From: Lachnospiraceae bacterium | GTDB taxonomy: Bacteria > Bacillota > Clostridia > Lachnospirales > Lachnospiraceae | DNA: 46,193 nucleotides | Assembly (NCBI GenBank): GCA_017938285.1 | Contig: JAGBBW010000096.1 | Location: 1 to 46,193 of the forward strand | Reading direction: 5' to 3' | Notes under the pieces: generated by a model | What the model saw: only the letters and a program-made list of their open reading frames with translations | The model's database searches: none | Told to the model about the DNA's origin: nothing | Position numbers and translations under genes: made by a program | Shown here: positions 1,292 to 34,239 of the stretch, in pieces | Position numbering within the stretch: the stretch's first letter is position 1 | Layout of the letters: each line of letters opens with the position of its first letter

Positions 1292-3052
1292 TTAAAACTC
1301 TGTCTTCTGCGCCTTCACAATATACTGGTATGCCAGATAAGGGAACCGCTCTTTTGATTCGGAAAGAGAAACCAGTAAGTCAATCAGCTCTGATGTGGCT
1401 TCATCGGGGGTTCCTGCGGTAGTGTAACTGTAGTATTCGATATTGTGATATCCGTTGCCTGAGATAAGACGCAGGAGTTCTTCTCCGGTATACAGTTTAC
1501 GCTGTGTGGTATCAGGAATGTCGTTTTCCTTGGATGGAAAACGGTCTTTAATAATAAGTGGCAGTATATAGGAGTAGTGCTTGATGTTAGGCATACTGAC
1601 AATAATATGGCCGCCTTTTTTTACATGCCGGTGCAGTCTTCTTAGAAGGTGGGCAGGCTGGCGCAGCTGCGCCAGAACATCCCCCAGAATCACATAGTCA
1701 AAATAGTTTTCCGGCCATGGAAAATCCAGCGCTTCAATATCAGCACAAATGACATCCAGCATGTGACCGGCTATGCCGGCATGGGTTGGGGAAATTTCAA
1801 CTCCGTGTATGGTGGCGTGTGGGTATTTTCCTTTCAGAAAGGATGCGGTGGCACCACATCCACAGCCAATATCCAGGAGAGTGAACGGTGTTTCCTGGTC
1901 TTCAGTAATACGGGCTGCCAGTTCCTGACGGGGATACAGGGAATGGCTTTCGTCAATTCCCCACTTTTCTTTAAATTTCTTTCTATTTGTGTTCAGCAGA
2001 GTGTCATAATCCTGTTCTGTTTTTTCAAATGTTTTACTGCCAAAATGGATGATAAAACTGTTTTTGCAAAGGATATTTTTGTATCCTGCCTGAAGTACAC
2101 GAAGACCATAATCGGTATCTTCATAATTTCCTGGAGAGAAGCGTTCATCCAGACCGCCAAGTTTGTCAAGGACAGTCCGGCGGATGAGAAGGGCAAAACC
2201 GATAAGAAACAGTTTTTCTTCGTATGGGTGGTTCATTGGGACATTATTTTTTTCTCCAAAACTTAACTGGGCATGGATGGAGAAGTCGTTCAAAGGAACT
2301 TTCTGCAGGTTTGGTACACAGTTGGATACGCTTCCGGCAGTTCCATGTGTTTCATTTTCATACAATCCCATGCGTAACCAGAACAATGCATTTGGAGTCA
2401 GCTGGGTATCATTATTGAGGAGAAAAATGTCATTTTCCCTGGAAGCAAGTTCGATTCCTTCATTGCAGCCTTTTGGGAATCCGGAATTTTCTTTATTTTC
2501 TCTTACGATGATGTCTTTTTGTTCTTTGAGCCAGGCGATACTTCCATCGGTGGAGGCGTTGTCCACCACAATAATTTCCCTGGCAGTTTCCGGAACGGTG
2601 GCCCGGATGCTTTCAATGCAGTTTTTCGTGTAAGCCAGCAGGCTGCAGGACAGGATAATGAAAGAGGTTTTCTGGACTGTAATCCGGCATTCATTTTTTA
2701 AGTTATCGATGTAAGACTGGATGAGGGCGGAATCATCGGCATCGGTGCAGTAAAATAAGGCGTTCTCAAAGCAGAGACAGGCCTGGTCCGGGTTGGTCGG
2801 TAAGTAATATTCTCCCAGCAGAAGATACAATTCAAAATTTCTGTAGTTACAGGAGAGACCACGCTGGATGGCAGTCCACATCTGAGGGTAGTCATTGTTT
2901 AACTGGCAAAGACTGGCATCGTAAATGGCAATTGTATCATCATAAAGTTCCGGGAGTTCTCTGGCTGTTTCTATAATCTGCGCTGCTGTGGAGTATTCCT
3001 CCAGAGCGAAAAGCTGTTTCAAATTTTCAGTAATTTCATTGAGTGTAAGCAT
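1292..3052 (-). CDS. TPR-like / family 2 glycosyltransferase / SAM methyltransferase fusion
   Basis: A 586-residue three-part protein. Residues 1-125 are helical and TPR-like. Residues 128-350 are a GT-A fold family 2 glycosyltransferase: VVDNASTDGS at 162-171, NNDT at 213-216 in the DXD position, EDTDYGLR at 311-318. Residues 388-500 are a class I methyltransferase with the SAM loop LDIGCGCG at 393-400. Such fusions usually transfer a sugar from a nucleotide sugar and methylate it in surface glycan or flagellin glycosylation. No signal peptide, so it is probably cytoplasmic. The start has AAGGAG close upstream. It diverges from a second GT2 gene, so the two probably act on the same glycan. 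Acceptor and sugar cannot be read from sequence. Confidence 0.82.
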   Translation of the reverse strand: MLTLNEITENLKQLFALEEYSTAAQIIETARELPELYDDTIAIYDASLCQLNNDYPQMWTAIQRGLSCNYRNFELYLLLGEYYLPTNPDQACLCFENALFYCTDADDSALIQSYIDNLKNECRITVQKTSFIILSCSLLAYTKNCIESIRATVPETAREIIVVDNASTDGSIAWLKEQKDIIVRENKENSGFPKGCNEGIELASRENDIFLLNNDTQLTPNALFWLRMGLYENETHGTAGSVSNCVPNLQKVPLNDFSIHAQLSFGEKNNVPMNHPYEEKLFLIGFALLIRRTVLDKLGGLDERFSPGNYEDTDYGLRVLQAGYKNILCKNSFIIHFGSKTFEKTEQDYDTLLNTNRKKFKEKWGIDESHSLYPRQELAARITEDQETPFTLLDIGCGCGATASFLKGKYPHATIHGVEISPTHAGIAGHMLDVICADIEALDFPWPENYFDYVILGDVLAQLRQPAHLLRRLHRHVKKGGHIIVSMPNIKHYSYILPLIIKDRFPSKENDIPDTTQRKLYTGEELLRLISGNGYHNIEYYSYTTAGTPDEATSELIDLLVSLSESKERFPYLAYQYIVKAQKTEF

Positions 3053-9901: not shown

Positions 9902-11311
9902 ATGGGGCGAAAAAAACTGGTAATGTTCCGGCTGCGTTATACATTGTTTGACCGGGTGCTTCTGGCCGGGATGACACTGCTTGTTATAATCACGATGGTA
10001 CTTTTCTACCTGTATACAGGCAGGACGGAAGAGAACCAGATTGATTTTGTGCGGCTTGTAATGGAAAAGACTTCCCTGAGCCAGAAAGAACGGTTTGAAA
10101 CTTTTGTGGATGATAAGGTGGCACTGTTGCAGGCTCTGGCAGCGTATCCGGAGATTTATGAAATGAATCCGGAAGTTCAGGCGGAGTTTGTATGCGGGCG
10201 GTCGGAAAAACTTGGATTCCATCATATTTTTGTGATGAACCGGGATGGCAATGGATTTTATTTTGACGAAGGTGTCATAAAGAATCAGCGGAATGAGTCG
10301 TTTTATACCGATGTTATGGATAATGAGGTATATATTACGGAACCGTTTTATAAGGAGGAGGGTCTGACCATTATGACCGTCTGTGTGTCCGTGTATGACC
10401 GGGAAAACCAGAAAAATGGTGTGTTATGCGGCGCAGTGGATCTGAGTACGGTGCAGGAGATGATTGCCGGGGATGAGATGCTGTTAAGTGGGGACTGTTT
10501 TATACTGGACCGTTCCGGGGCGTATGTGACGGAGCCGGATTCCGGCAATATCAGAACGGAAAAAACGTTGTATGATTTGAAAAAATCCGAAGTTTCCCTG
10601 ATTCAGCAGGCCTTTTTGTGGGAAGATGACCGGAGTGGCACGATAGTCCTGGAGGACCGGGAATATCTGGCACGGGCCTGTTATCTGCCGGATTATACCT
10701 GGACGATTGTACAGTGCATCCCGATGGATAAGATAGTACAGCAGTTTGAAAGCCTGGAAGTTCTGCAGACGGTATTGTTTGCGGCGATTGTGGCGTTGAT
10801 TGCCTGTATTGCCCGCCTGATTTACTGCTGGAATAAAAGTGATAAGGAAACGTATGCGGATGCGCTGACAAAATGCAGCAATCGTGCCGCCTGTATGAAG
10901 ATGATTTCTTATCTGGAGAAAAAAACATCGGAAGACATTATGATTATCTATATGGACCTGAATAAGTTTAAGTATGTCAATGATACGTTTGGCCACGACA
11001 AGGGGGATGAACTGCTGAAAATCTTCAGCCGGGTACTGGAAGAAATTCTTGGAAAACGTGGATTTGTCTGCCGCATGGGCGGGGATGAATTTGTTTCCAT
11101 CCAGCTGGCACTGTCGGAAGCGGAGCTTTCTGTCCTGTGGCAGGCGGTGGAAGAACGTCTTCTGGAAGAAAGCAGAAAACTGGATTTTGCGTATACGATT
11201 TCTTCTTCCTATGGCTTTGCGGTCAGACCAAAGGGAGAGAATGGTTCCCTGGAAGAACTGATGCAGCAGGCAGATGAGAAGATGTATGCCTATAAACAGG
11301 CGAGAAAATAA
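9902..11311 (+). CDS. Membrane diguanylate cyclase with extracytoplasmic Cache-like sensor
   Basis: A 469-residue protein: membrane helix about 18-40, an extracytoplasmic Cache-like sensor (about 45-285), a second helix about 290-315, and a GGDEF domain to the end. The active-site loop GGDEF (393-397) is intact and DKGDELL lies upstream, so it should make cyclic di-GMP from two GTP. In the frame used by PleD, the inhibitory I-site RxxD before GGDEF is not present (glycine at both key positions), so classical product inhibition is not expected. It starts 49 bp behind the lacI gene with a GGGGTG site and may read through from it. The signal sensed is unknown. Confidence 0.9.
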   Translation: MGRKKLVMFRLRYTLFDRVLLAGMTLLVIITMVLFYLYTGRTEENQIDFVRLVMEKTSLSQKERFETFVDDKVALLQALAAYPEIYEMNPEVQAEFVCGRSEKLGFHHIFVMNRDGNGFYFDEGVIKNQRNESFYTDVMDNEVYITEPFYKEEGLTIMTVCVSVYDRENQKNGVLCGAVDLSTVQEMIAGDEMLLSGDCFILDRSGAYVTEPDSGNIRTEKTLYDLKKSEVSLIQQAFLWEDDRSGTIVLEDREYLARACYLPDYTWTIVQCIPMDKIVQQFESLEVLQTVLFAAIVALIACIARLIYCWNKSDKETYADALTKCSNRAACMKMISYLEKKTSEDIMIIYMDLNKFKYVNDTFGHDKGDELLKIFSRVLEEILGKRGFVCRMGGDEFVSIQLALSEAELSVLWQAVEERLLEESRKLDFAYTISSSYGFAVRPKGENGSLEELMQQADEKMYAYKQARK

Positions 11312-11343
11312 AGAAATATGTTTGCGCTGGAAGGGAGAAGGAT

Positions 11344-12003
11344 ATGAAGACGATTGCTATCGTAGAAGATGATGTATATATTGGAGATATGGTGGAAAAG
11401 TTTCTGACCAGTGAAGGCTATGCGGTGCTTCGTGCCTATTCGGGCACAGAAGCACTGCTTTTGTTTGAACAGAAAAAGCCGGATCTTGTATTAATGGACT
11501 TAATGCTGCCGGGAGCATCGGGAGAAGAATTGCTGCCGAAGCTGAAAGGGACTCCGGTGATTGTAGTCAGTGCCAAAGCAGGGGTAGAGGATATTGTGTC
11601 CCTGCTGATGGACGGCGCGGTGGACTATATTACGAAGCCTTTTGACACAAGAGAGCTGCTGGCACGGATTACCGTGGCGCTGCGGAAAAGTGAACCCCAG
11701 GGAGAAAACATCCGCCTGTCCCACCGGGAAATTGTCATGGATCTGGAAAAGCACAGTGTAGAGGCGGGGGGTGTCACTGTACGTCTGACCCGGACGGAGT
11801 ACGCCATTTTGAAAATCCTTTTACGGAATGCCGGGCAGGTAGTGACGAAGACAGTACTTCTGGAGCGTATTTCCCTGGAAACGCCGGATTGTGTGGAAAA
11901 TTCGCTGAAGGTGCATGTGAGCAATCTGCGCCGGAAGTTAAAGGAAGCTTCCGGGGAAGAATATATTGAATCTGTGTGGGGTGTCGGCTTTACCATTTCT
12001 TAA
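11344..12003 (+). CDS. OmpR/PhoB-family response regulator
   Basis: A 219-residue two-domain regulator. The receiver (1-115) has acidic pocket residues E8/D9/D10, phospho-acceptor D52 in LVLMDLMLPG, and the conserved lysine in ITKPFD. The C-terminal winged helix (125-219) has LTRTEYAIL and VHVSNLRRKL, typical of OmpR-type DNA binders. AAGGGAG is at the start. It heads a regulator-exporter-kinase group; the cognate kinase is the last gene of that group. It may share transcription with the diguanylate cyclase, 32 bp upstream. Confidence 0.93.
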   Translation: MKTIAIVEDDVYIGDMVEKFLTSEGYAVLRAYSGTEALLLFEQKKPDLVLMDLMLPGASGEELLPKLKGTPVIVVSAKAGVEDIVSLLMDGAVDYITKPFDTRELLARITVALRKSEPQGENIRLSHREIVMDLEKHSVEAGGVTVRLTRTEYAILKILLRNAGQVVTKTVLLERISLETPDCVENSLKVHVSNLRRKLKEASGEEYIESVWGVGFTIS

Positions 12004-12051
12004 CGTTTTCCTTAACCGCTTTCTTAACAGAGGGATGGTAGGCTGTAGCTA
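12000..12051 (+). promoter_or_regulatory. Triple TTAAC direct repeat and weak promoter ahead of the ABC exporter genes
   Basis: TTAAC occurs at 12000, 12012 and 12024, an exact 12-bp period in tandem, the arrangement expected for an OmpR-family regulator. The last copy overlaps TTAACA, which is followed 16 bp later by TAGCTA as a weak -35/-10 pair. The site begins at the response regulator stop codon and would place the exporter genes under its control. Confidence 0.5.
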
Positions 12052-12140
12052 AAGACAGAGGAACAGGTTCCAGATGGTCTGGGAATGGAAGAATGCTGTC
12101 AGAATGGATACAGCCGGAAAGCGGCGGAATGGAGGATAAC

Positions 12141-13055
12141 ATGGAATATGTATTACAGACCAGTGGACTGACCAAGCACTATGGACAGTTTAAAGCGCTG
12201 AATGGTCTTACTATGAATGTGCCGAAGGGTGCGATTTATGGTTTTGTCGGGAAAAATGGCGCAGGAAAGACGACACTGATTCGTCTGGTGGCAGGGCTGC
12301 AGCTGCCAACCAGCGGGGAATTTACCTTGTATGACTGTAAAAACAGCGGAGTTTTTATTGAACGGGCAAGGCGGCGGCTGGGGGCCGTGGTGGAAACGCC
12401 GTCTATTTTTCTGGATATGACGGCAGAGGAAAATCTGCGGCAGCAGTACATGGTGCTTGGACGTCCCTCCTTTGACGGAATCAAAGAGCTGCTGGAGCTG
12501 GTAGGGCTTTCCGATACCGGAAAAAAGAAGGCAAAGAATTTTTCCCTTGGTATGCGGCAGCGGCTTGGTATCGCCATTGCACTGGCGGGGGACCCGGATT
12601 TACTTCTGCTGGATGAACCGATTAACGGACTGGACCCACAAGGTATCATTGGTATCCGGGAGCTGATTTTAAAACTGAACCGGGAGAAACAGATTACGGT
12701 GCTGATTTCCAGTCATATTTTAGAGGAACTGTCAAAGCTGGCGACCCATTATGGTTTTGTGGACGGCGGACGGATGGTGAAGGAAATCAGTGCGGAAGAG
12801 CTGGAGGCAGCCTGCCGCAAGTGTATTCATCTTACGGTTTCGGATACCAAAATACTGGCGAGGGTGCTGGATGAATTTGGACTGGAGTATACCATTATTT
12901 CGGATCAGGAAGCGGATGTGTACGGAACCATCGGGGTAACAGAGCTGACGCTGCGTCTGGCGAAGGAACAGTGCGAAGTACGTTCCATGCAGGAGCGGGA
13001 GGAAAGTCTGGAAAGCTACTATATGAGTCTGGTAGGAGGTGGCAGTGATGAGTAA
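12141..13055 (+). CDS. ABC transporter ATP-binding protein, peptide-antibiotic exporter type
   Basis: A 304-residue ATPase. Walker A GKNGAGKTT at 37-45, signature SLGMRQRLGIA, Walker B LLLLDEPINGLDP and the H-loop SSHILEE are all present, so it should be active. The start at MEYVLQ is set by a GGAGG 6 nt upstream; an in-frame ATG 48 nt earlier lacks a site. The C-terminal extension resembles lantibiotic-immunity and bacitracin-type exporters. It overlaps the permease gene by 8 bp, indicating translational coupling. Together they would pump a peptide or lipid out of the membrane. Confidence 0.92.
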   Translation: MEYVLQTSGLTKHYGQFKALNGLTMNVPKGAIYGFVGKNGAGKTTLIRLVAGLQLPTSGEFTLYDCKNSGVFIERARRRLGAVVETPSIFLDMTAEENLRQQYMVLGRPSFDGIKELLELVGLSDTGKKKAKNFSLGMRQRLGIAIALAGDPDLLLLDEPINGLDPQGIIGIRELILKLNREKQITVLISSHILEELSKLATHYGFVDGGRMVKEISAEELEAACRKCIHLTVSDTKILARVLDEFGLEYTIISDQEADVYGTIGVTELTLRLAKEQCEVRSMQEREESLESYYMSLVGGGSDE

Positions 13056-13899
13056 GTTATTACGTGCAAATTTTGTCCGCCTCCGGAAGATGAAATCGTT
13101 CTGGATTGGAATGGCAGTGCTTGTATTTTATGGTCTGTTTATCGGCTGGGATACGGTAAGTGCCATCGAGAGCCATGGCTGGGAAACGCGGGCAGTGGAT
13201 ATTTACCAGGCGACATTTTCTACTACACTGGTGTTTGGTCTGGTGATTTCCATTGTCTGTTCGCTGTTTGTGGGAACGGAGTACAGTGATGGTGTTATCC
13301 GCAACAAACTGGCAACCGGACAGAAGCGGACTGTTGTATATCTGGCGGATTTTATTACCTGTATGGTGATGTCGGTGCTGCTGGCGGTAGTGCAGTATAC
13401 GGTCTGCGGTGCGTATGCGGTAGCAGCTATGGGAACCGAACTGGTGGATTGGAGCTACCTGTTTTCGCTGGCGGCTGTGGGCTGCATGATGGTAACGGCA
13501 TATGCGGCAATATTTACGTTTGTTTCCATGTTAAATTCCAGCAAGACCCATGGGGTAATTATTAATATGCTGTTGTACTTTGGCATTATTTTGTTTTCCA
13601 GTTATCTGTATTCCAATCTGAGCCAGCCGGAGATGATGGAAGCTCCGGTCAGTATGTCTGTGGTGAATGACAGCCAGATTGAAACAACCGTGGAACTTTT
13701 GGAAAATCCATATTATCTGGAAGGAACCAAAAGGGAAATTTACCAGTTCCTTTATGATTTTCTGCCGGGCGGCCAGGGCAATCAGGTGGCCGGTGCAGAG
13801 GCGGAGAAGCCGGGACTTTTGATGGGGTATGCTGCGCTTCTGACAATTAGTATGAATATTGCCGGGGTATTGTTGTTCCGGAGAAAGGATATCAAATAG
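13048..13899 (+). CDS. ABC-2 type permease of the peptide exporter
   Basis: A 283-residue membrane protein with about six hydrophobic segments (around 18-36, 60-82, 100-125, 140-165, 172-192 and the C-terminus) and the cytoplasmic GTEYSDGVIRNKLATG motif typical of ABC-2 permeases. The start is ATG after TAGGAGG; a GTG 9 nt earlier overlaps that site. It overlaps the ATPase gene by 8 bp. Its size matches LanE/LanG-like immunity permeases rather than the ~650-residue BceB class. Likely partner: the preceding ATPase; likely role: defence against antimicrobial peptides (inference). Confidence 0.88.
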   Translation: MSKLLRANFVRLRKMKSFWIGMAVLVFYGLFIGWDTVSAIESHGWETRAVDIYQATFSTTLVFGLVISIVCSLFVGTEYSDGVIRNKLATGQKRTVVYLADFITCMVMSVLLAVVQYTVCGAYAVAAMGTELVDWSYLFSLAAVGCMMVTAYAAIFTFVSMLNSSKTHGVIINMLLYFGIILFSSYLYSNLSQPEMMEAPVSMSVVNDSQIETTVELLENPYYLEGTKREIYQFLYDFLPGGQGNQVAGAEAEKPGLLMGYAALLTISMNIAGVLLFRRKDIK

Positions 13900-13900
13900 T

Positions 13901-14785
13901 ATGACTTCATTTCTTACCGCCCTGTGCGTTCTGTTAAGCGTTCTGGTACTGGTACTTGTGTGCTGTCTGTTTTCCATGCGCCGGGCGGTAAGGATGCTGC
14001 GGGAAGATTTTATACGGAGACTTTCGGAAGATACAAACGTTGGTATTGACAGTGCCTGTGCAGATAAGGAGATATGTCTTCTGGCAGCAGAACTGGATAA
14101 ACAGTTAAAGGTACTGCGGCAGGAGCATCTCCGGTATGTAAAGGGCGACCGGGAGTTAAAGGAGGCGGTGACGAACATGTCCCACGATTTACGGACGCCG
14201 CTGACTGCCATCTGCGGGTATCTGGATATGCTGGAAAAAGAAGAAATGTCCCCAAAAGTTCGGGAATATCTGGGGGTGATTGGCAACCGGGTGCAGGCGA
14301 TGAAGGGACTGGCGGAAGAGCTGTTCCGGTATTCCGTGGTACTGTCTGCGGGACCGGAGGAAAAAACAGAGCGTCTTTCTTTGAATGCTGCCCTGGAGGA
14401 CTGTATTGTGGCGTATTATAGTGCCTTTAAAGAGGCTGGTATTGCACCGGAAATTGAGATGCCGGAGGAAGTGGTGTACTGTCAGGGAAAGAAACAGGTG
14501 CTGTCCCGGATTTTATCAAATATTGTGAGTAATGCCATAAAGTACAGTGACGGGGATTTCCGGGTGGTGCTGACGACAGATGGTATCATGCAGTTTGAAA
14601 ACCGGGCGGAAAAACTGGACGAAGTGCAGGTGGGACGGCTGTTTGACCGCTTTTTTACGGTGGAGAATGCGAGAAATTCTACAGGGCTGGGACTTTCCAT
14701 TGCGAAACATCTGACAGAAGAAATGGGAGGTGCGATGTCGGCAGAGTATGAGGATGGGATGCTGAGGATATGGGTGAAAATTTAA
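13901..14785 (+). CDS. Sensor histidine kinase, short N-terminal anchor
   Basis: A 294-residue kinase starting at MTSFLTALC. One membrane helix (about 4-25), a short linker, then the dimerisation/phospho-acceptor domain with H95 in NMSHDLRTPL, the N-box SNIVSNAIKYS and the G2 box GLGLSIAKHL. With a single membrane helix and no external domain it probably senses through its partner exporter, as small kinases beside ABC-2 exporters do. The start follows the permease stop by 1 nt with GGAGAAAGGA upstream; a longer TTG reading overlapping the permease has no site. Should phosphorylate the response regulator at the head of the group. Confidence 0.9.
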   Translation: MTSFLTALCVLLSVLVLVLVCCLFSMRRAVRMLREDFIRRLSEDTNVGIDSACADKEICLLAAELDKQLKVLRQEHLRYVKGDRELKEAVTNMSHDLRTPLTAICGYLDMLEKEEMSPKVREYLGVIGNRVQAMKGLAEELFRYSVVLSAGPEEKTERLSLNAALEDCIVAYYSAFKEAGIAPEIEMPEEVVYCQGKKQVLSRILSNIVSNAIKYSDGDFRVVLTTDGIMQFENRAEKLDEVQVGRLFDRFFTVENARNSTGLGLSIAKHLTEEMGGAMSAEYEDGMLRIWVKI

Positions 14786-14794
14786 GAAAATATA

Positions 14795-14822
14795 TTTACA
14801 TTTAAAAGAAATAGTGTATAAT
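14795..14822 (+). promoter_or_regulatory. Promoter of the type III antitoxin RNA
   Basis: TTTACA, 16 bp, TATAAT: a strong sigma-A promoter starting 10 bp after the kinase stop codon. It points into the tandem repeats and then the toxin gene. Confidence 0.7.
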
Positions 14823-14857
14823 AAAGATAAGGAATCATTCGTTTGATTTCTTTAGTT

Positions 14858-14954
14858 GGTTACGAAGCCGGAAAATCGTATTAATAGAGGTTACAGAGCC
14901 TGTCAAAAACTGTATTAATAGAGGTTACGAAGCCTATAAAAATCGTGTTAATAG
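14858..14954 (+). repeat. Tandem repeats of the antitoxin RNA
   Basis: Unit starts lie near 14878, 14912 and 14945 (spacing 34 and 33). A degenerate first copy keeps only GGTTACGAAGCC (14858-14869). The last copy keeps GTGTTAATAGAGG and then runs into the terminator hairpin, whose loop region repeats GGTTACAG. There are no unique spacers, so this is not a CRISPR array. Confidence 0.85.
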
Positions 14955-14978
14955 AGGAGCTGGTTACAGCTCCTTTGT
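14955..14978 (+). terminator. Leaky terminator between antitoxin RNA and toxin gene
   Basis: AGGAGCTG and CAGCTCCT form a perfect 8-bp stem with the loop GTTA, followed by TTGTTAG. The weak U-tract fits partial readthrough, which in type III systems sets the ratio of antitoxin RNA to toxin message. Confidence 0.65.
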
Positions 14979-14994
14979 TAGTTTGGAGGCAAGG

Positions 14995-15513
14995 ATGAAG
15001 TGGATTAATGTAAATGAAGCTTATTTGGACTATTTAAGAAGTATGGAGAAAAGAATTCCACGAACAGACTATGGAACAAATAAATACAAACCATTTTTTG
15101 GAATCTTATTTGAAGTGGGTGATTTATATTATGTTACGCAGGTTTCACATGCCCAGCCACGTCATCAAACTTTAAAGCAGCAAAAGGATTTCTACAAAAT
15201 ATTTGATCCTAAACAGCCTGCAAGATTAATTGCAGTAGTGAATTTGAATTATATGTTTCCGATTCCCAAAGAACAAACAACGCCATTTGAGAAGAAAAAT
15301 ATACATACATATCGGACTTTTGCCTCTGATGTGGAAAAGAGTAAATATATAGATTTACTGGATACCGAATTAGTTGTCATTAATTCTATGGATATTGGAA
15401 CCAGAGCAGAGGAATTATATCAATTGAAATATGATAAGCCGGACCATGTGGTTTCAAAAAGATGTATTGATTTTAAAAATATGGAGCAGCTGGCTTTGCA
15501 GTATAGAAAATGA
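14995..15513 (+). CDS. Type III toxin, ToxN/AbiQ-family endoribonuclease
   Basis: A 172-residue protein with the ToxN/AbiQ layout: INVNEAYLDYLRS at the N-terminus, KPFFGILFEVGDLYYVTQVSH (two strands, around 32-52), then RLIAVVNLNYMFPIP, the strand that follows in ToxN-fold proteins, and a helical C-terminus. Family enzymes cut A-rich RNA and are held inactive by their repeat RNA; many act in phage defence by abortive infection. The ATG start is 5 nt behind GGAGG; an in-frame TTG 12 nt earlier overlaps that site. Upstream repeats and terminator complete the system. It seems closest to the CptN branch reported in Eubacterium rectale (inference). Confidence 0.82.
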   Translation: MKWINVNEAYLDYLRSMEKRIPRTDYGTNKYKPFFGILFEVGDLYYVTQVSHAQPRHQTLKQQKDFYKIFDPKQPARLIAVVNLNYMFPIPKEQTTPFEKKNIHTYRTFASDVEKSKYIDLLDTELVVINSMDIGTRAEELYQLKYDKPDHVVSKRCIDFKNMEQLALQYRK

Positions 15514-15520
15514 ATAGAAG

Positions 15521-15596
15521 AAAAAAATCTCCTCCTGTATACTGGCAGGCAGTGAATTGTCACTGAACAGCCTGCCAGTATACAGGAGGAGTTTTT
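15521..15596 (+). terminator. Long perfect bidirectional terminator
   Basis: 22-bp perfect arms (15529-15550 and 15570-15591), with AGTG/CACT pairing in the loop, are flanked by seven A on the left and five T on the right. It ends the toxin transcript on the plus strand and the AraC-family transcript on the minus strand. Confidence 0.9.
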
Positions 15597-15654
15597 GACT
15601 AACCTGTATGAAAATCTGATATTTTTTCTTTTTGACGTTTTATCAGGAAATGCC

Positions 15655-16536
15655 TTATCTCTTCCTCTCCCGGTAAGCTGCCGGGGTCCATCCTGTCACT
15701 TTCTTAAAATGATGTATGAACTGGTTTGTATTTTCATATCCCACCTGATAACTGATTTCATGTACTTTCAGTGTTGTTTCTGCTAAAAGAAGTCGGGCTT
15801 TTGCTATCCTGGCGGCGTGCAGATACTGCAGGGGCGGCTGGGAAAAGTGCACACGGAATTCCCGGCAGAGGCGGTAACGGTTGACACCGAACAGGGATTC
15901 CAGGCCATCCAGGGAAATATCCTTAAAAAAGTTCTGGTCCAGATATTCCCGCATCTGACGCAGGTAATCCGGTACGGTATCTCCGGGTTCGGAAGCAGAG
16001 TAGTACTCAATCAGCTCAGACAGAAAATCCGTCATGAGGCGGTGGAAAACAAAAGGAGCCATGGTCTGGGAACCGGTTGGCAGCAGCGGCCGCAGATACG
16101 AGTTTAAACCGGAGGCAGATAAGGAGGACAGGAACAGACCATTATTACTGGACAGCTCCTCGTAAAAGCATGGTGCCGGGGAACCATTAAAATAAAGAAT
16201 GTCATATTCAAAATTGGATACGGAGGAGAAGGAAAATCCTTTGCTGCCGTCAAACAGTACAAAGGAATTGGGTGCCATACTGTAGTGGTGGTCACCGAAG
16301 GTGATGTTGCCGTTGCCTCTGGCAACATACAGGAACCCAAAGGTCGGAAGCGGATGGAAGGACAGATGCAGTCCTGCCGGCATGGTAATGTGTCCGTAAG
16401 CCTGTGGATAGAAGAGATATGCGGAATGACTGCCGTCTGTGGCGGTGTTTTTAGGTAAATAGTGGGTTACAGGCATGGAAGCGGTATTGGACGGTATTTC
16501 TGTCAGACCATGCATAAGTAAATGTACAAAATCCAT
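15655..16536 (-). CDS. AraC-family transcriptional regulator with cupin sensor
   Basis: A 293-residue regulator starting at MDFVHLLMHG, chosen for AAGGAGGAAATC directly upstream; a longer frame upstream has no site. Residues 20-150 are a cupin-like sugar-binding domain (HLSFHPLPTFGFLYVARGNG). Residues 190-293 are two AraC helix-turn-helix motifs (ISLDGLESLFGVNRYRL and HEISYQVGYENTNQFIHHFKK). Divergent from the mannan operon across a 392-bp spacer, it is the natural candidate activator of that operon with a manno-oligosaccharide effector (inference). Its own promoter lies about 100 bp upstream. Confidence 0.92.
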   Translation of the reverse strand: MDFVHLLMHGLTEIPSNTASMPVTHYLPKNTATDGSHSAYLFYPQAYGHITMPAGLHLSFHPLPTFGFLYVARGNGNITFGDHHYSMAPNSFVLFDGSKGFSFSSVSNFEYDILYFNGSPAPCFYEELSSNNGLFLSSLSASGLNSYLRPLLPTGSQTMAPFVFHRLMTDFLSELIEYYSASEPGDTVPDYLRQMREYLDQNFFKDISLDGLESLFGVNRYRLCREFRVHFSQPPLQYLHAARIAKARLLLAETTLKVHEISYQVGYENTNQFIHHFKKVTGWTPAAYRERKR

Positions 16537-32349: not shown

Positions 32350-34239
32350 GTGAAAAAACAGAAACTTTTCGCAGTAGCAATGGCGGCTGCCATGACATTG
32401 TCTATGGCTGCGTGCGGTGGGGAAACGCAGACAAACAACGAGACAACGTCCACACCGGCTCCAACAGCCACAACAGCGCCAACAGCAACACCGGTTCCAA
32501 CACAGGCTCCAGTAGCTGATCCAACAGCAACTCCTGTTCCGGAACCACAGAATGTCACAATCGAAGGTGCAAGTGTAAACTTCGAAGACGGCAACATGGG
32601 ATTCGTGGCAGCTTATATGCAGCATGCGACATCCGCAGATGTGGAGCTTTCCATCGTTGATTTCAATGGAAGCAAGGCTTTACAGGTAACAAACTTAAAC
32701 GGCAAGGTTCCATTTGTAGCTATCGATGCAACAAGCCTTCTGGGTGCAAATGTTGCTAACGTGGCAGGTGTGGAACTGGTAATGGGTATTTCCCATCCAG
32801 ATGGTTCTTTCAACGCTGTAGCAGGTAAGATTATGACCTGGGACAACGATAACAAGAAAGAAGTAGAAATTGCTGACTGGTCCGTTTATATGGCCAAGAA
32901 GAATCCAAAGGTAACAAAAGTAGATTTTACTAACAGCTTTTCCGCTGATGTAAGCAACATCGTTATGTTCAGCTTAAAGGAAGATAATGGTGCGGCTAAG
33001 GCAGGTAACGCTACCATGTACATTGATGACATCCGTTTCTATGACAAGGATGGCAACACAATTACAGCAGATACTACCGTTGCTTTCGTAGAACCAGAAG
33101 GTTTCTCCGGCGGCGGTGCAGACTACTCCAACCTGTATCTTGTACAGAATGCAGTAGAATTCCCAGGCTTTGCAACAAGTGCAGGAGCATGGGCACAGGC
33201 AGGTTTTGACATGCCACAGGAAATCATCGATGCATTAGTACCAGGTTCCGTTGTTGAAATCTCCTACAAGAGTGATGACGGTGCAATGTGGGTTGTAATG
33301 CCGGGTGCAGCAGTAGGCTGGTCCAGAGTGGCAGATGGCGGCAAGTCCTATACAAACAATTCCAAGAATGTATGTCAGGTAACTTATGAGCAGATTGCAG
33401 CAGTATGCGGTGAAGACAAGAGCACATGGGGAACAACCATGCAGTGTGAAGGTTCTTCCAACTGGGAAGTTTACTCTGTAAAGGTTGGTACTGCCGTAAA
33501 TCGTGTAGATGCAGCAGCAGCAGTAGAATTTGATGGATTTACTGCAAGCGCAGGAGCATGGACACAGGCAGGCTTTGATATGCCTCAGACAATTATTGAC
33601 GCATTAGTACCAGGTTCCGTAATCGAAATTGATTACAGCAGCGAAGATGGTGCAATGTGGATCGTAATGCCGGGTGCAGCAGTAGGCTGGTCCAGAGTAG
33701 GTGATGGCGGCAAGGCTCTTTGTGCAGGCGGTAAGTGCTATGTAACTTATGAGCAGATTGCAGCAGTATGCGGCGAAGACAAGAGCACATGGGGAGCAAC
33801 TCTTCAGTGTGAAGGTTCTTCCGCATGGGAAGTATATGGATTAAGAGTTGGTACTAAGGCTGAATTCCCAGTATTAAACAGCTTTGTTCAGTTCCCTGAT
33901 TTTGCTGCAAGTGCAGGAGCATGGACACAGGCAGGTTTTGATATGCCACAGGAAATCATTGATGCATTAGTTCCGGGTTCCGTAGTTGAAATTGCCTACA
34001 CCAGTGAAGACGGTGCAATGTGGCTTGTAATGCCAGGTGCAGCAGTAGGCTGGTCCAGAGTAGGTGACGGCGGCAAGGCTCTTTGTGAGAATGGTATCTG
34101 TTATGTAACTTATGAACAGATTGCAGCAGTATGCGGCGAAGACAAGAGCACATGGGGAGCAACCATGCAGTGTGAAGGTTCTTCCGCATGGGAAGTTTAT
34201 TCTGTAAGAGTAGGTCAGACACCTGCAAAGGCAGAATAA
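32350..34239 (+). CDS. Surface lipoprotein with three tandem carbohydrate-binding-like repeats
   Basis: A 629-residue lipoprotein. The signal ends LSMAACGG with C22 lipidated, then a threonine/proline/alanine linker (about 30-75). Residues 75-240 form a beta-rich domain. Then come three near-identical units starting near residues 268, 391 and 513, each about 105 residues plus linker, with AGAWTQAGFDMPQEIIDAL, DGAMWVVMPGAAVGWSRV and VTYEQIAAVCGEDKSTWG. Conserved tryptophans and aromatic residues suit sugar binding; I do not recognise the family. It is read from GTG with AGGAGG upstream. Likely a non-catalytic surface glycan-binding protein serving GH26 and the transporters (inference). Confidence 0.82.
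   Translation: MKKQKLFAVAMAAAMTLSMAACGGETQTNNETTSTPAPTATTAPTATPVPTQAPVADPTATPVPEPQNVTIEGASVNFEDGNMGFVAAYMQHATSADVELSIVDFNGSKALQVTNLNGKVPFVAIDATSLLGANVANVAGVELVMGISHPDGSFNAVAGKIMTWDNDNKKEVEIADWSVYMAKKNPKVTKVDFTNSFSADVSNIVMFSLKEDNGAAKAGNATMYIDDIRFYDKDGNTITADTTVAFVEPEGFSGGGADYSNLYLVQNAVEFPGFATSAGAWAQAGFDMPQEIIDALVPGSVVEISYKSDDGAMWVVMPGAAVGWSRVADGGKSYTNNSKNVCQVTYEQIAAVCGEDKSTWGTTMQCEGSSNWEVYSVKVGTAVNRVDAAAAVEFDGFTASAGAWTQAGFDMPQTIIDALVPGSVIEIDYSSEDGAMWIVMPGAAVGWSRVGDGGKALCAGGKCYVTYEQIAAVCGEDKSTWGATLQCEGSSAWEVYGLRVGTKAEFPVLNSFVQFPDFAASAGAWTQAGFDMPQEIIDALVPGSVVEIAYTSEDGAMWLVMPGAAVGWSRVGDGGKALCENGICYVTYEQIAAVCGEDKSTWGATMQCEGSSAWEVYSVRVGQTPAKAE
33145..34224 (+). repeat. Three in-frame ~366-bp gene repeats
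   Basis: Three direct repeats inside the lipoprotein gene, with period 369 then 366 bp. DNA identity stays high over long runs (for example around GCAGGAGCATGG and GTAGGCTGGTCCAGAG), indicating recent duplication or gene conversion. Confidence 0.85.

What the first reader, a model, noticed from the sequence alone, without database searches (positions are those of the whole stretch)
14795..15596. Complete type III toxin-antitoxin locus with a tandem-repeat RNA antitoxin
Seen: a strong promoter, about 3.5 copies of a 33-34 nt repeat, a leaky terminator hairpin, a 172-residue ToxN/AbiQ-like protein, and a strong bidirectional terminator, all in 800 bp. Known: type III systems have exactly this order; the repeat RNA folds into pseudoknots that inhibit the endoribonuclease, and several abort phage infection. 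Odd points: the repeat unit sequence is one I do not recognise, the last repeat merges into the terminator hairpin, and the locus abuts an antibiotic-peptide exporter operon. The ~34-nt unit may define a new antitoxin variant within the CptIN-like branch.
Basis: partly seen in the sequence, partly recalled or inferred. Interest (0 to 1): 0.85.

Follow-up and report, generated by a model that had tools for sequence, protein, structure and literature searches.

The report
ToxIN toxin–antitoxin with unequal RNA units
A bacterium carries a small RNA-guarded toxin gene of a known anti-phage kind, but its three guard-RNA units are not identical copies and the toxin's predicted active site differs from studied relatives, making it a distinct variety of a familiar system.

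Summary
In detail: a near-consensus promoter, three ~33-nt units, a hairpin with a weak T-run, a 172-residue ToxN/AbiQ-family protein and a long terminator-like hairpin, in window 14795-15596. By anatomy and homology it is a complete type III toxin-antitoxin locus of the ToxIN/AbiQ branch. It is not CptIN-like: PF13958 155.6 bits; four ToxN/AbiQ structures rank above CptN. Eleven of 11 close homologues with upstream sequence carry three units of the same repeat family. Across 33 aligned units (31 distinct) an H-type pseudoknot is supported by compensatory changes: 34 double-change cells against 10.8±2.5 shuffled, 0/500. New relative to the papers I could read: (1) 9 of 14 arrays, the window's included, hold units whose second stem differs on both strands, 6 of them in order A-B-A; (2) ToxN residues Ser53 and Lys55 align with His52 and Gln54, the His in 12 of 12 clade members; (3) two large viral contigs carry relatives. 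The locus ends a ~4.35-kb segment (two-component/ABC genes plus toxIN) missing from a same-genus genome. Transcription, cleavage and toxicity were not tested. A new variant of a known kind.

The parts
11297..15649 (.). segment absent from same-genus genome G002: response regulator, ABC ATPase, ABC permease, histidine kinase and the toxIN locus
   Evidence: blastn of L083 (G002) against the window: colinear match ends at window 11296 (L083 14081) and resumes at 15650 (L083 14105)
14795..14822 (+). sigma-70-type promoter TTTACA-16-TATAAT
   Evidence: 11 of 12 consensus positions
14857..14883 (+). antitoxin unit 1, pseudoknot core (S2 = ACGA/UCGU, type A)
14888..14917 (+). antitoxin unit 2, pseudoknot core (S2 = ACAG/CUGU, type B, changed on both strands)
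14922..14950 (+). antitoxin unit 3, pseudoknot core (type A)
14950..14979 (+). 13-bp hairpin with weak T-run between antitoxin and toxin (supposed read-through terminator); its 5' arm is the start of a fourth unit
   Evidence: -19.8 kcal/mol, z -6.7; not called by the terminator scan
14985..14989 (+). Shine-Dalgarno GGAGG
   Evidence: read
14995..15513 (+). ToxN/AbiQ-family toxin (predicted endoribonuclease), 172 aa
   Evidence: PF13958 155.6 bits; AbiQ; AF2 pLDDT 89.6; Foldseek ToxN/AbiQ E 1.9e-8 to 4e-7
15529..15591 (.). long terminator-like hairpin (A-run on one side, T-run on the other)
   Evidence: -49.4 kcal/mol, z -9.2; not called by the terminator scan

Best explanation
[quoted passage not shown] One promoter makes a short RNA of three pseudoknot units; most transcripts should stop at the hairpin after the units and a minority read through to make the toxin. 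The toxin is an endoribonuclease that should cut the precursor near the conserved UAAU junctions into single ~33-nt pseudoknots, which bind it back in a closed ring (by analogy three toxins and three RNAs) and block its active site. When the short-lived RNA is lost, for example after a phage shuts off host transcription, free toxin cuts cellular and phage RNA and stops growth. Shown here: locus anatomy, homology, predicted fold, conserved array, pseudoknot covariation. Inferred from characterised relatives: termination, cutting and its place, inhibition, ring assembly, phage defence.
For: Toxin family. Same three-unit array in 11 of 11 close genomic homologues with upstream sequence. Pseudoknot: 95.7% of 279 cells paired (85.5% in shuffles), 34 double-change cells against 10.8 (sd 2.5), 0/500 for both; slid controls 28-49% paired; the four core S2 pairs (columns 6-9 with 24-27) hold in all 31 distinct units. 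S1 keeps its two central G-C pairs in 28 and 31 of 31 units and L2 has two invariant A's, as described for ToxI in PMC8860590 (section 21 read). Nested folding of the window array is not better than shuffles (z -0.67), as expected if it folds as pseudoknots. UAAU follows S2 in 38 of 41 units and, after the third unit, sequence diverges beyond it, consistent with a processing site. Clade of 12 with support 100/99.
Against: Several residues whose mutation abolishes E. coli ToxN toxicity (Lys55, Trp57, Asn79, Gln117; PMC8860590 passages) align with Gln54, Arg56, Arg77, Glu125 here (alignments, mapped by hand), so activity cannot be assumed. No transcript, cleavage or toxicity data. The inter-gene hairpin lacks a good T-run and may not terminate much. 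Three units lack UAAU (L016 unit 1, both of L036). On one search's count of further pair types the structure is no better than shuffles (326/500).
Confidence: 0.87

Rival explanations
1. A decayed or retuned type III locus: the RNA still binds the protein but the toxin has lost or weakened its ribonuclease activity through the active-site changes, and serves as a regulator or is passively inherited.
For: S53 to H52, K55 to Q54, W57 to R56, N79 to R77, Q117 to E125 by alignment; one homologue (L024) has a shortened, out-of-frame C-terminus, and L016 and L023 have no in-frame ATG at the expected start.
Against: K32, S51 and H52 are invariant in the 10 clade members aligned and present in the two viral members; the array is kept with compensatory changes, which suggests selection on the RNA-protein pair. 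L022, L023 and L035 keep Lys at position 54. The window's own frame is intact.
Confidence: 0.12
2. A CptIN-branch system.
For: Many of the nearest homologues are labelled Lachnospiraceae, the family (recalled) of Coprococcus, after which CptIN is named (PMC5086642 passage); CptN shares the fold remotely (Foldseek probability 1.00 for 4rmo).
Against: CptN ranks fifth with TM 0.54 against 0.76-0.78 for ToxN/AbiQ and is not hit by sequence; CptI is 45 nt in two repeats, here ~33 nt in three.
Confidence: 0.03
3. The repeats are not an antitoxin but a cis-regulatory leader (attenuator) of the toxin gene only.
For: They lie in the 5' leader directly before a hairpin and the ORF; in viral contig L036 the last unit abuts the ribosome-binding site with no hairpin seen between (by eye).
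Against: The three ToxIN-branch systems named in PMC5086642 (ToxI of P. atrosepticum and B. thuringiensis, antiQ; passages) use such arrays as antitoxins; three units with matched pseudoknots are not expected of a simple attenuator.
Confidence: 0.04

Closest known systems
AbiQ/antiQ (Lactococcus lactis)
   Same: Same Pfam and PADLOC family, same fold (4glk TM 0.78); antitoxin 35 nt x 2.8 (PMC5086642 passage) against ~33 nt x 3
   Different: 27.4% identity to a Lactococcus plasmid homologue; active-site S-S-K in that homologue (L088) against S-H-Q; repeat sequences of antiQ itself were not compared
ToxIN of P. atrosepticum, B. thuringiensis and E. coli
   Same: Fold (2xd0, 4ato, 7d8o TM 0.76-0.78), gene order, H-type pseudoknot, unit length 34-36 nt for the first two (PMC5086642)
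   Different: T-S-K active site in E. coli ToxN (PMC8860590); in ToxI of P. atrosepticum one variable base is noted among repeats (PMC3475682 figure legend), against unequal, compensated S2 stems here
CptIN (Eubacterium rectale)
   Same: Type III logic, remote fold similarity (4rmo TM 0.54)
   Different: 45-nt units from two repeats, heterotetramer, different active-site set (PMC4627078 sections 3, 12, 14 read)
HMP2_3156 / HMP2_5421 / HMP2_14852 candidate RNAs upstream of ToxN in human microbiomes (PMC8040213, passages read)
   Same: Structured RNA before ToxN in Clostridiales or Leptotrichia
   Different: No sequence was available to me, so overlap with these arrays, or with the L012-type leader, was not tested

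Membership tests
Type III TA, ToxIN (ToxN/AbiQ) branch | Toxin homologous to ToxN/AbiQ | tested here: met
   PF13958 155.6 bits, cut-off 25; Foldseek E 1.9e-8
Type III TA, ToxIN (ToxN/AbiQ) branch | Tandem array of short repeats upstream (34-36 nt in characterised members) | tested here: met
   3.1 copies, period 34; three units in 11 of 11 homologues
Type III TA, ToxIN (ToxN/AbiQ) branch | Promoter before the array and a terminator hairpin between array and toxin | tested here: met
   Promoter 11/12; hairpin -19.8 kcal/mol, z -6.7, though its T-run is poor and the terminator scan did not call it
Type III TA, ToxIN (ToxN/AbiQ) branch | Repeat unit folds as H-type pseudoknot | tested here: met
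   Covariation count, 0/500 shuffles for cells paired, double-change cells and covariation score; no structure solved
Type III TA, ToxIN (ToxN/AbiQ) branch | Active-site residues Lys33, Thr52, Ser53, Lys55 (E. coli numbering) | tested here: inconclusive
   Lys33 kept as K32, Thr52 to S51 conservative, Ser53 to H52 and Lys55 to Q54 changed (mapped by hand); another ToxN branch also varies (L012 S-H-V)
Type III TA, ToxIN (ToxN/AbiQ) branch | Toxin is a ribonuclease, processed RNA inhibits it, closed heterohexamer | not testable with these tools
   Needs expression, RNA sequencing and a structure
CptIN branch | Toxin closest to CptN | tested here: not met
   CptN 4rmo rank 5, TM 0.54, E 1.7e-3; not hit by phmmer. 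No CptN sequence was placed in a tree
CptIN branch | 45-nt units in two repeats (E. rectale example) | tested here: not met
   ~33 nt, three units

The most novel reading that the evidence does not exclude
The three antitoxin units are functionally non-equivalent. The middle unit is kept different in its second stem by paired changes (order A-B-A in the window and five relatives; A-C-D in L022 and a viral contig), so that each position in the precursor or ring has its own unit, or so that adjacent units cannot mis-pair or slip; and the partner toxin has a rewired catalytic site with a histidine in place of Ser53.
Probability: 0.25. Interest if true: 0.6.

Novelty: new variant of a known kind. 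Interest (0 to 1): 0.42.

Why it matters
The type III antitoxins in the papers I read are described as repeats of one unit. A clade in which units of one array differ by compensated stem changes gives natural evidence for the pseudoknot inside single loci, and lets one ask whether a toxin ring needs identical RNAs. The altered active site makes the clade a test of which catalytic residues ToxN enzymes really need. Copies on viral contigs make it relevant to defence and counter-defence in these bacteria.

Tried and rejected
CptIN membership: rejected. Rfam: no family reached its gathering score in 14700-15700; the miRNA-like hits lie on the terminator palindrome and a weak L13-leader hit is below threshold. 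NCBIfam: no family for the toxin at E up to 0.1. Orphan antitoxin arrays: a sequence-only model of the array (R1) matched 21 of 397 family genomes at E<=0.01 (strict filters, 9 candidates scored per genome), but only the window's own match is strong (103 bits, next 25.9). Seven of the 22 weaker matches were read by eye and none is an antitoxin array (L091 also without tandem repeats); one, L093, is a 36-nt repeat inside a 480-residue open frame. The other 15 were not read. So no sign of orphan arrays, and the array family is rare in this sample. Phage decoy repeats: two exact-pattern scans of viral contigs found none; these patterns miss even the units of L035 and L036, so the negative is weak. 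Final hairpin as dispersed element: its core has 9 matches with up to 1 mismatch in the genome against 5 for the reversed control, and two short partial blastn matches elsewhere, so not a clear repeat element. Link between exporter operon and toxin: no ToxN match near 7 of 7 histidine-kinase relatives examined. Literature: four 12-letter forms of the repeat core gave two papers, neither about TA by title; sequences in figures and supplements are not searched, and the founding classification paper (10.1093/nar/gks231) is not held, so 'not in print' is not claimed.

Full report
Observation. The array holds three full units plus the start of a fourth that forms the 5' arm of the first hairpin. 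The consensus terminator scan called neither hairpin.

Toxin identity. The protein matches Pfam ToxN_toxin over its full profile and PADLOC AbiQ. phmmer finds the ToxN structures 7d8o, 2xd0 and 4ato. An AlphaFold2 model from 10 clade members (mean pLDDT 89.6) matches 4ato, 2xd0, 7d8o and 4glk at TM 0.76-0.78; CptN (4rmo) is fifth at 0.54 and MazF-like toxins follow. It is therefore in the ToxN/AbiQ branch, not CptIN.

Homologues. One genome-contig scan confirmed 19 loci: 11 (L016-L026; best-segment identity 51-82%) with upstream sequence, one fragment without it (L027, 65%), and 7 distant (23-30%). All 11 of the 11 carry three units of the same repeat family. A viral-contig scan gave 2 of 108 candidate stretches as relatives: L035 (159-kb contig, three units) and L036 (132-kb contig, two units, no hairpin seen before the toxin). 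In 397 genomes of the same family, 45, the window's own included, have a ToxN-like match, but only the window's genome has this array at high score. A tree of 28 proteins puts the window in a clade of 12 (100/99) whose nearest group is L039/L040 (the 14 together 92/99); these carry another repeat.

Pseudoknot. Units align as S1 (columns 1-4 with 11-14) and S2 (5-9 with 24-28). Of 41 units found, 33 were aligned; the 8 left out (L021 units 2-3, L023 units 2-3, all three of L024, L026 unit 3) are identical in the core to units kept. 31 are distinct. 95.7% of 279 cells pair, against 85.5% in shuffles and 28-49% in slid controls; 34 cells have changes on both sides against 10.8 (sd 2.5); covariation score 0.378 against 0.176; 0/500 shuffles reach any of these three. 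Pairs with a double change: 5 against 3.0, reached by 6/500. Further pair types: not above shuffles (326/500). The four core S2 pairs never fail in the 31. Pair 4-11 fails in 5, pair 5-28 in 4, pair 1-14 in 3. The '4 of 4 in 41 of 41 units' printed chose the best offset and is biased; one search is the fair count. Related loci inflate such counts, but the changes also occur between units of one array.

Unequal units. S2 types per array: A-B-A (ACGA, ACAG, ACGA) in window, L016, L017, L018, L024, L025; A-C-D (ACGA, AUAG, ACGG) in L022 and L035; A then GCAG in L036; A-A-A in L020, L021, L023, L026; B-B-B in L019. So 9 of 14 arrays are unequal (L018 and L024 have the identical array, so 8 of 13 different ones). 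In all 9, unit 1 is ACGA and unit 2 ends in AG. L019 groups with L018 inside the A-B-A group (93/84), which suggests that units are sometimes homogenised and that inequality persists against this. Drift with compensation remains possible.

Active site. By the alignments, mapped by hand to E. coli ToxN numbering: Lys33 kept (K32), Thr52 conservative (S51), Tyr110 kept (Y118); Ser53 to H52, Lys55 to Q54, Trp57 to R56, Asn79 to R77, Gln117 to E125 changed. PMC8860590 (passages) reports loss of toxicity for K33A, T52V, K55A, W57F, N79L and Q117A. H52 is invariant in the 10 and present in L035 and L036. L022, L023 and L035 keep Lys at 54. His also occurs at this place in the separate L012 branch, and Glu at 125 in L012 and L039/L040, so these changes are not unique. 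The clade uses a rewired site or is altered in activity; this is inference.

Context. In same-genus G002 the DNA is colinear with the window up to 11296 and again from 15650, with 23 bp between: response regulator, ABC ATPase, permease, histidine kinase and toxIN are absent there. G003 also lacks them next to the AraC gene, with a different local order. G001 cannot be judged (contig end). NCBIfam best hits, all below cut-off: lantibiotic protection ATPase (TIGR03740, 205.5 bits), MutG permease (29.4 bits), VanS-like kinase (109.8 bits). Neighbouring ORFs of 13 homologues were compared by eye and no shared neighbour was noticed; 8 were searched in Pfam and 6 in PHROGs: resolvase and phage integrase near L019, a penicillinase repressor after L018, a response regulator after L016, tape-measure matches after L035 (about 0.3 kb) and L036 (about 2.5 kb). 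The TA unit seems to move on its own.

Verdict. A ToxIN system by anatomy, homology and RNA structure, with a repeat class that I did not find in print in the searches made (by terms; 83 by letters); the 2012 classification paper could not be read. Papers: PMC5086642 passages and section 17; PMC4627078 abstract and sections 3, 12, 14; PMC8860590 passages and section 21; PMC8040213 and PMC3475682 passages; all others from search listings only.

Noticed in passing
L012 (G000:C12:38493-38987, own genome), 2063-2126 minus strand; relatives L003, L006, L007, L008, L011, L045, L046, L048, L056, L057, L059: A second ToxN in the same genome, like L008, has no tandem repeat by TRF. Instead one canonical unit is followed by a different element with a 7-pair helix (94% of cells paired over 12 loci, 5 of 7 pairs with double changes, one pair failing in 5; whole structure 19 double-change cells against 7.3 shuffled, 0/500, but pairs with double change 95/500 and pair types 386/500). 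It looks like a two-part, non-repeating type III antitoxin that repeat-based searches would miss.
   Followed up: partly
L036:3918-4001: On a 132-kb viral contig the toxin follows two degenerate units with no hairpin seen between; the second unit's last S2 strand sits right against the supposed ribosome-binding site, so the pseudoknot could also control translation (by eye).
   Followed up: no
L035:2-6857: A toxIN locus with three units lies between two long ORFs of a 159-kb viral contig; the right one matches the C-terminal part of a tail tape-measure family, the left one matches nothing, so the locus may lie inside the tape-measure gene.
   Followed up: partly
G000:C133:19707-19925 (L086 927-1517): A third ToxN-like ORF (196 aa frame, E 7.6e-6) in the same genome; antitoxin not examined.
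   Followed up: no
L005/L014 (G059:C14): Two ToxN-like genes in a row; in the 320 bases read before each, only the first has a repeat array (by eye).
   Followed up: no
window 11344-14785; L016 4145-5730; L018 3659-5790: Sensor or drug-response type genes lie beside several copies (two-component/ABC in the window, response regulator at L016, penicillinase repressor at L018); too few to call an association.
   Followed up: no
window 33151-34215: About 2.9 copies of a 363-bp tandem repeat inside the ORF 32350-34239.
   Followed up: no
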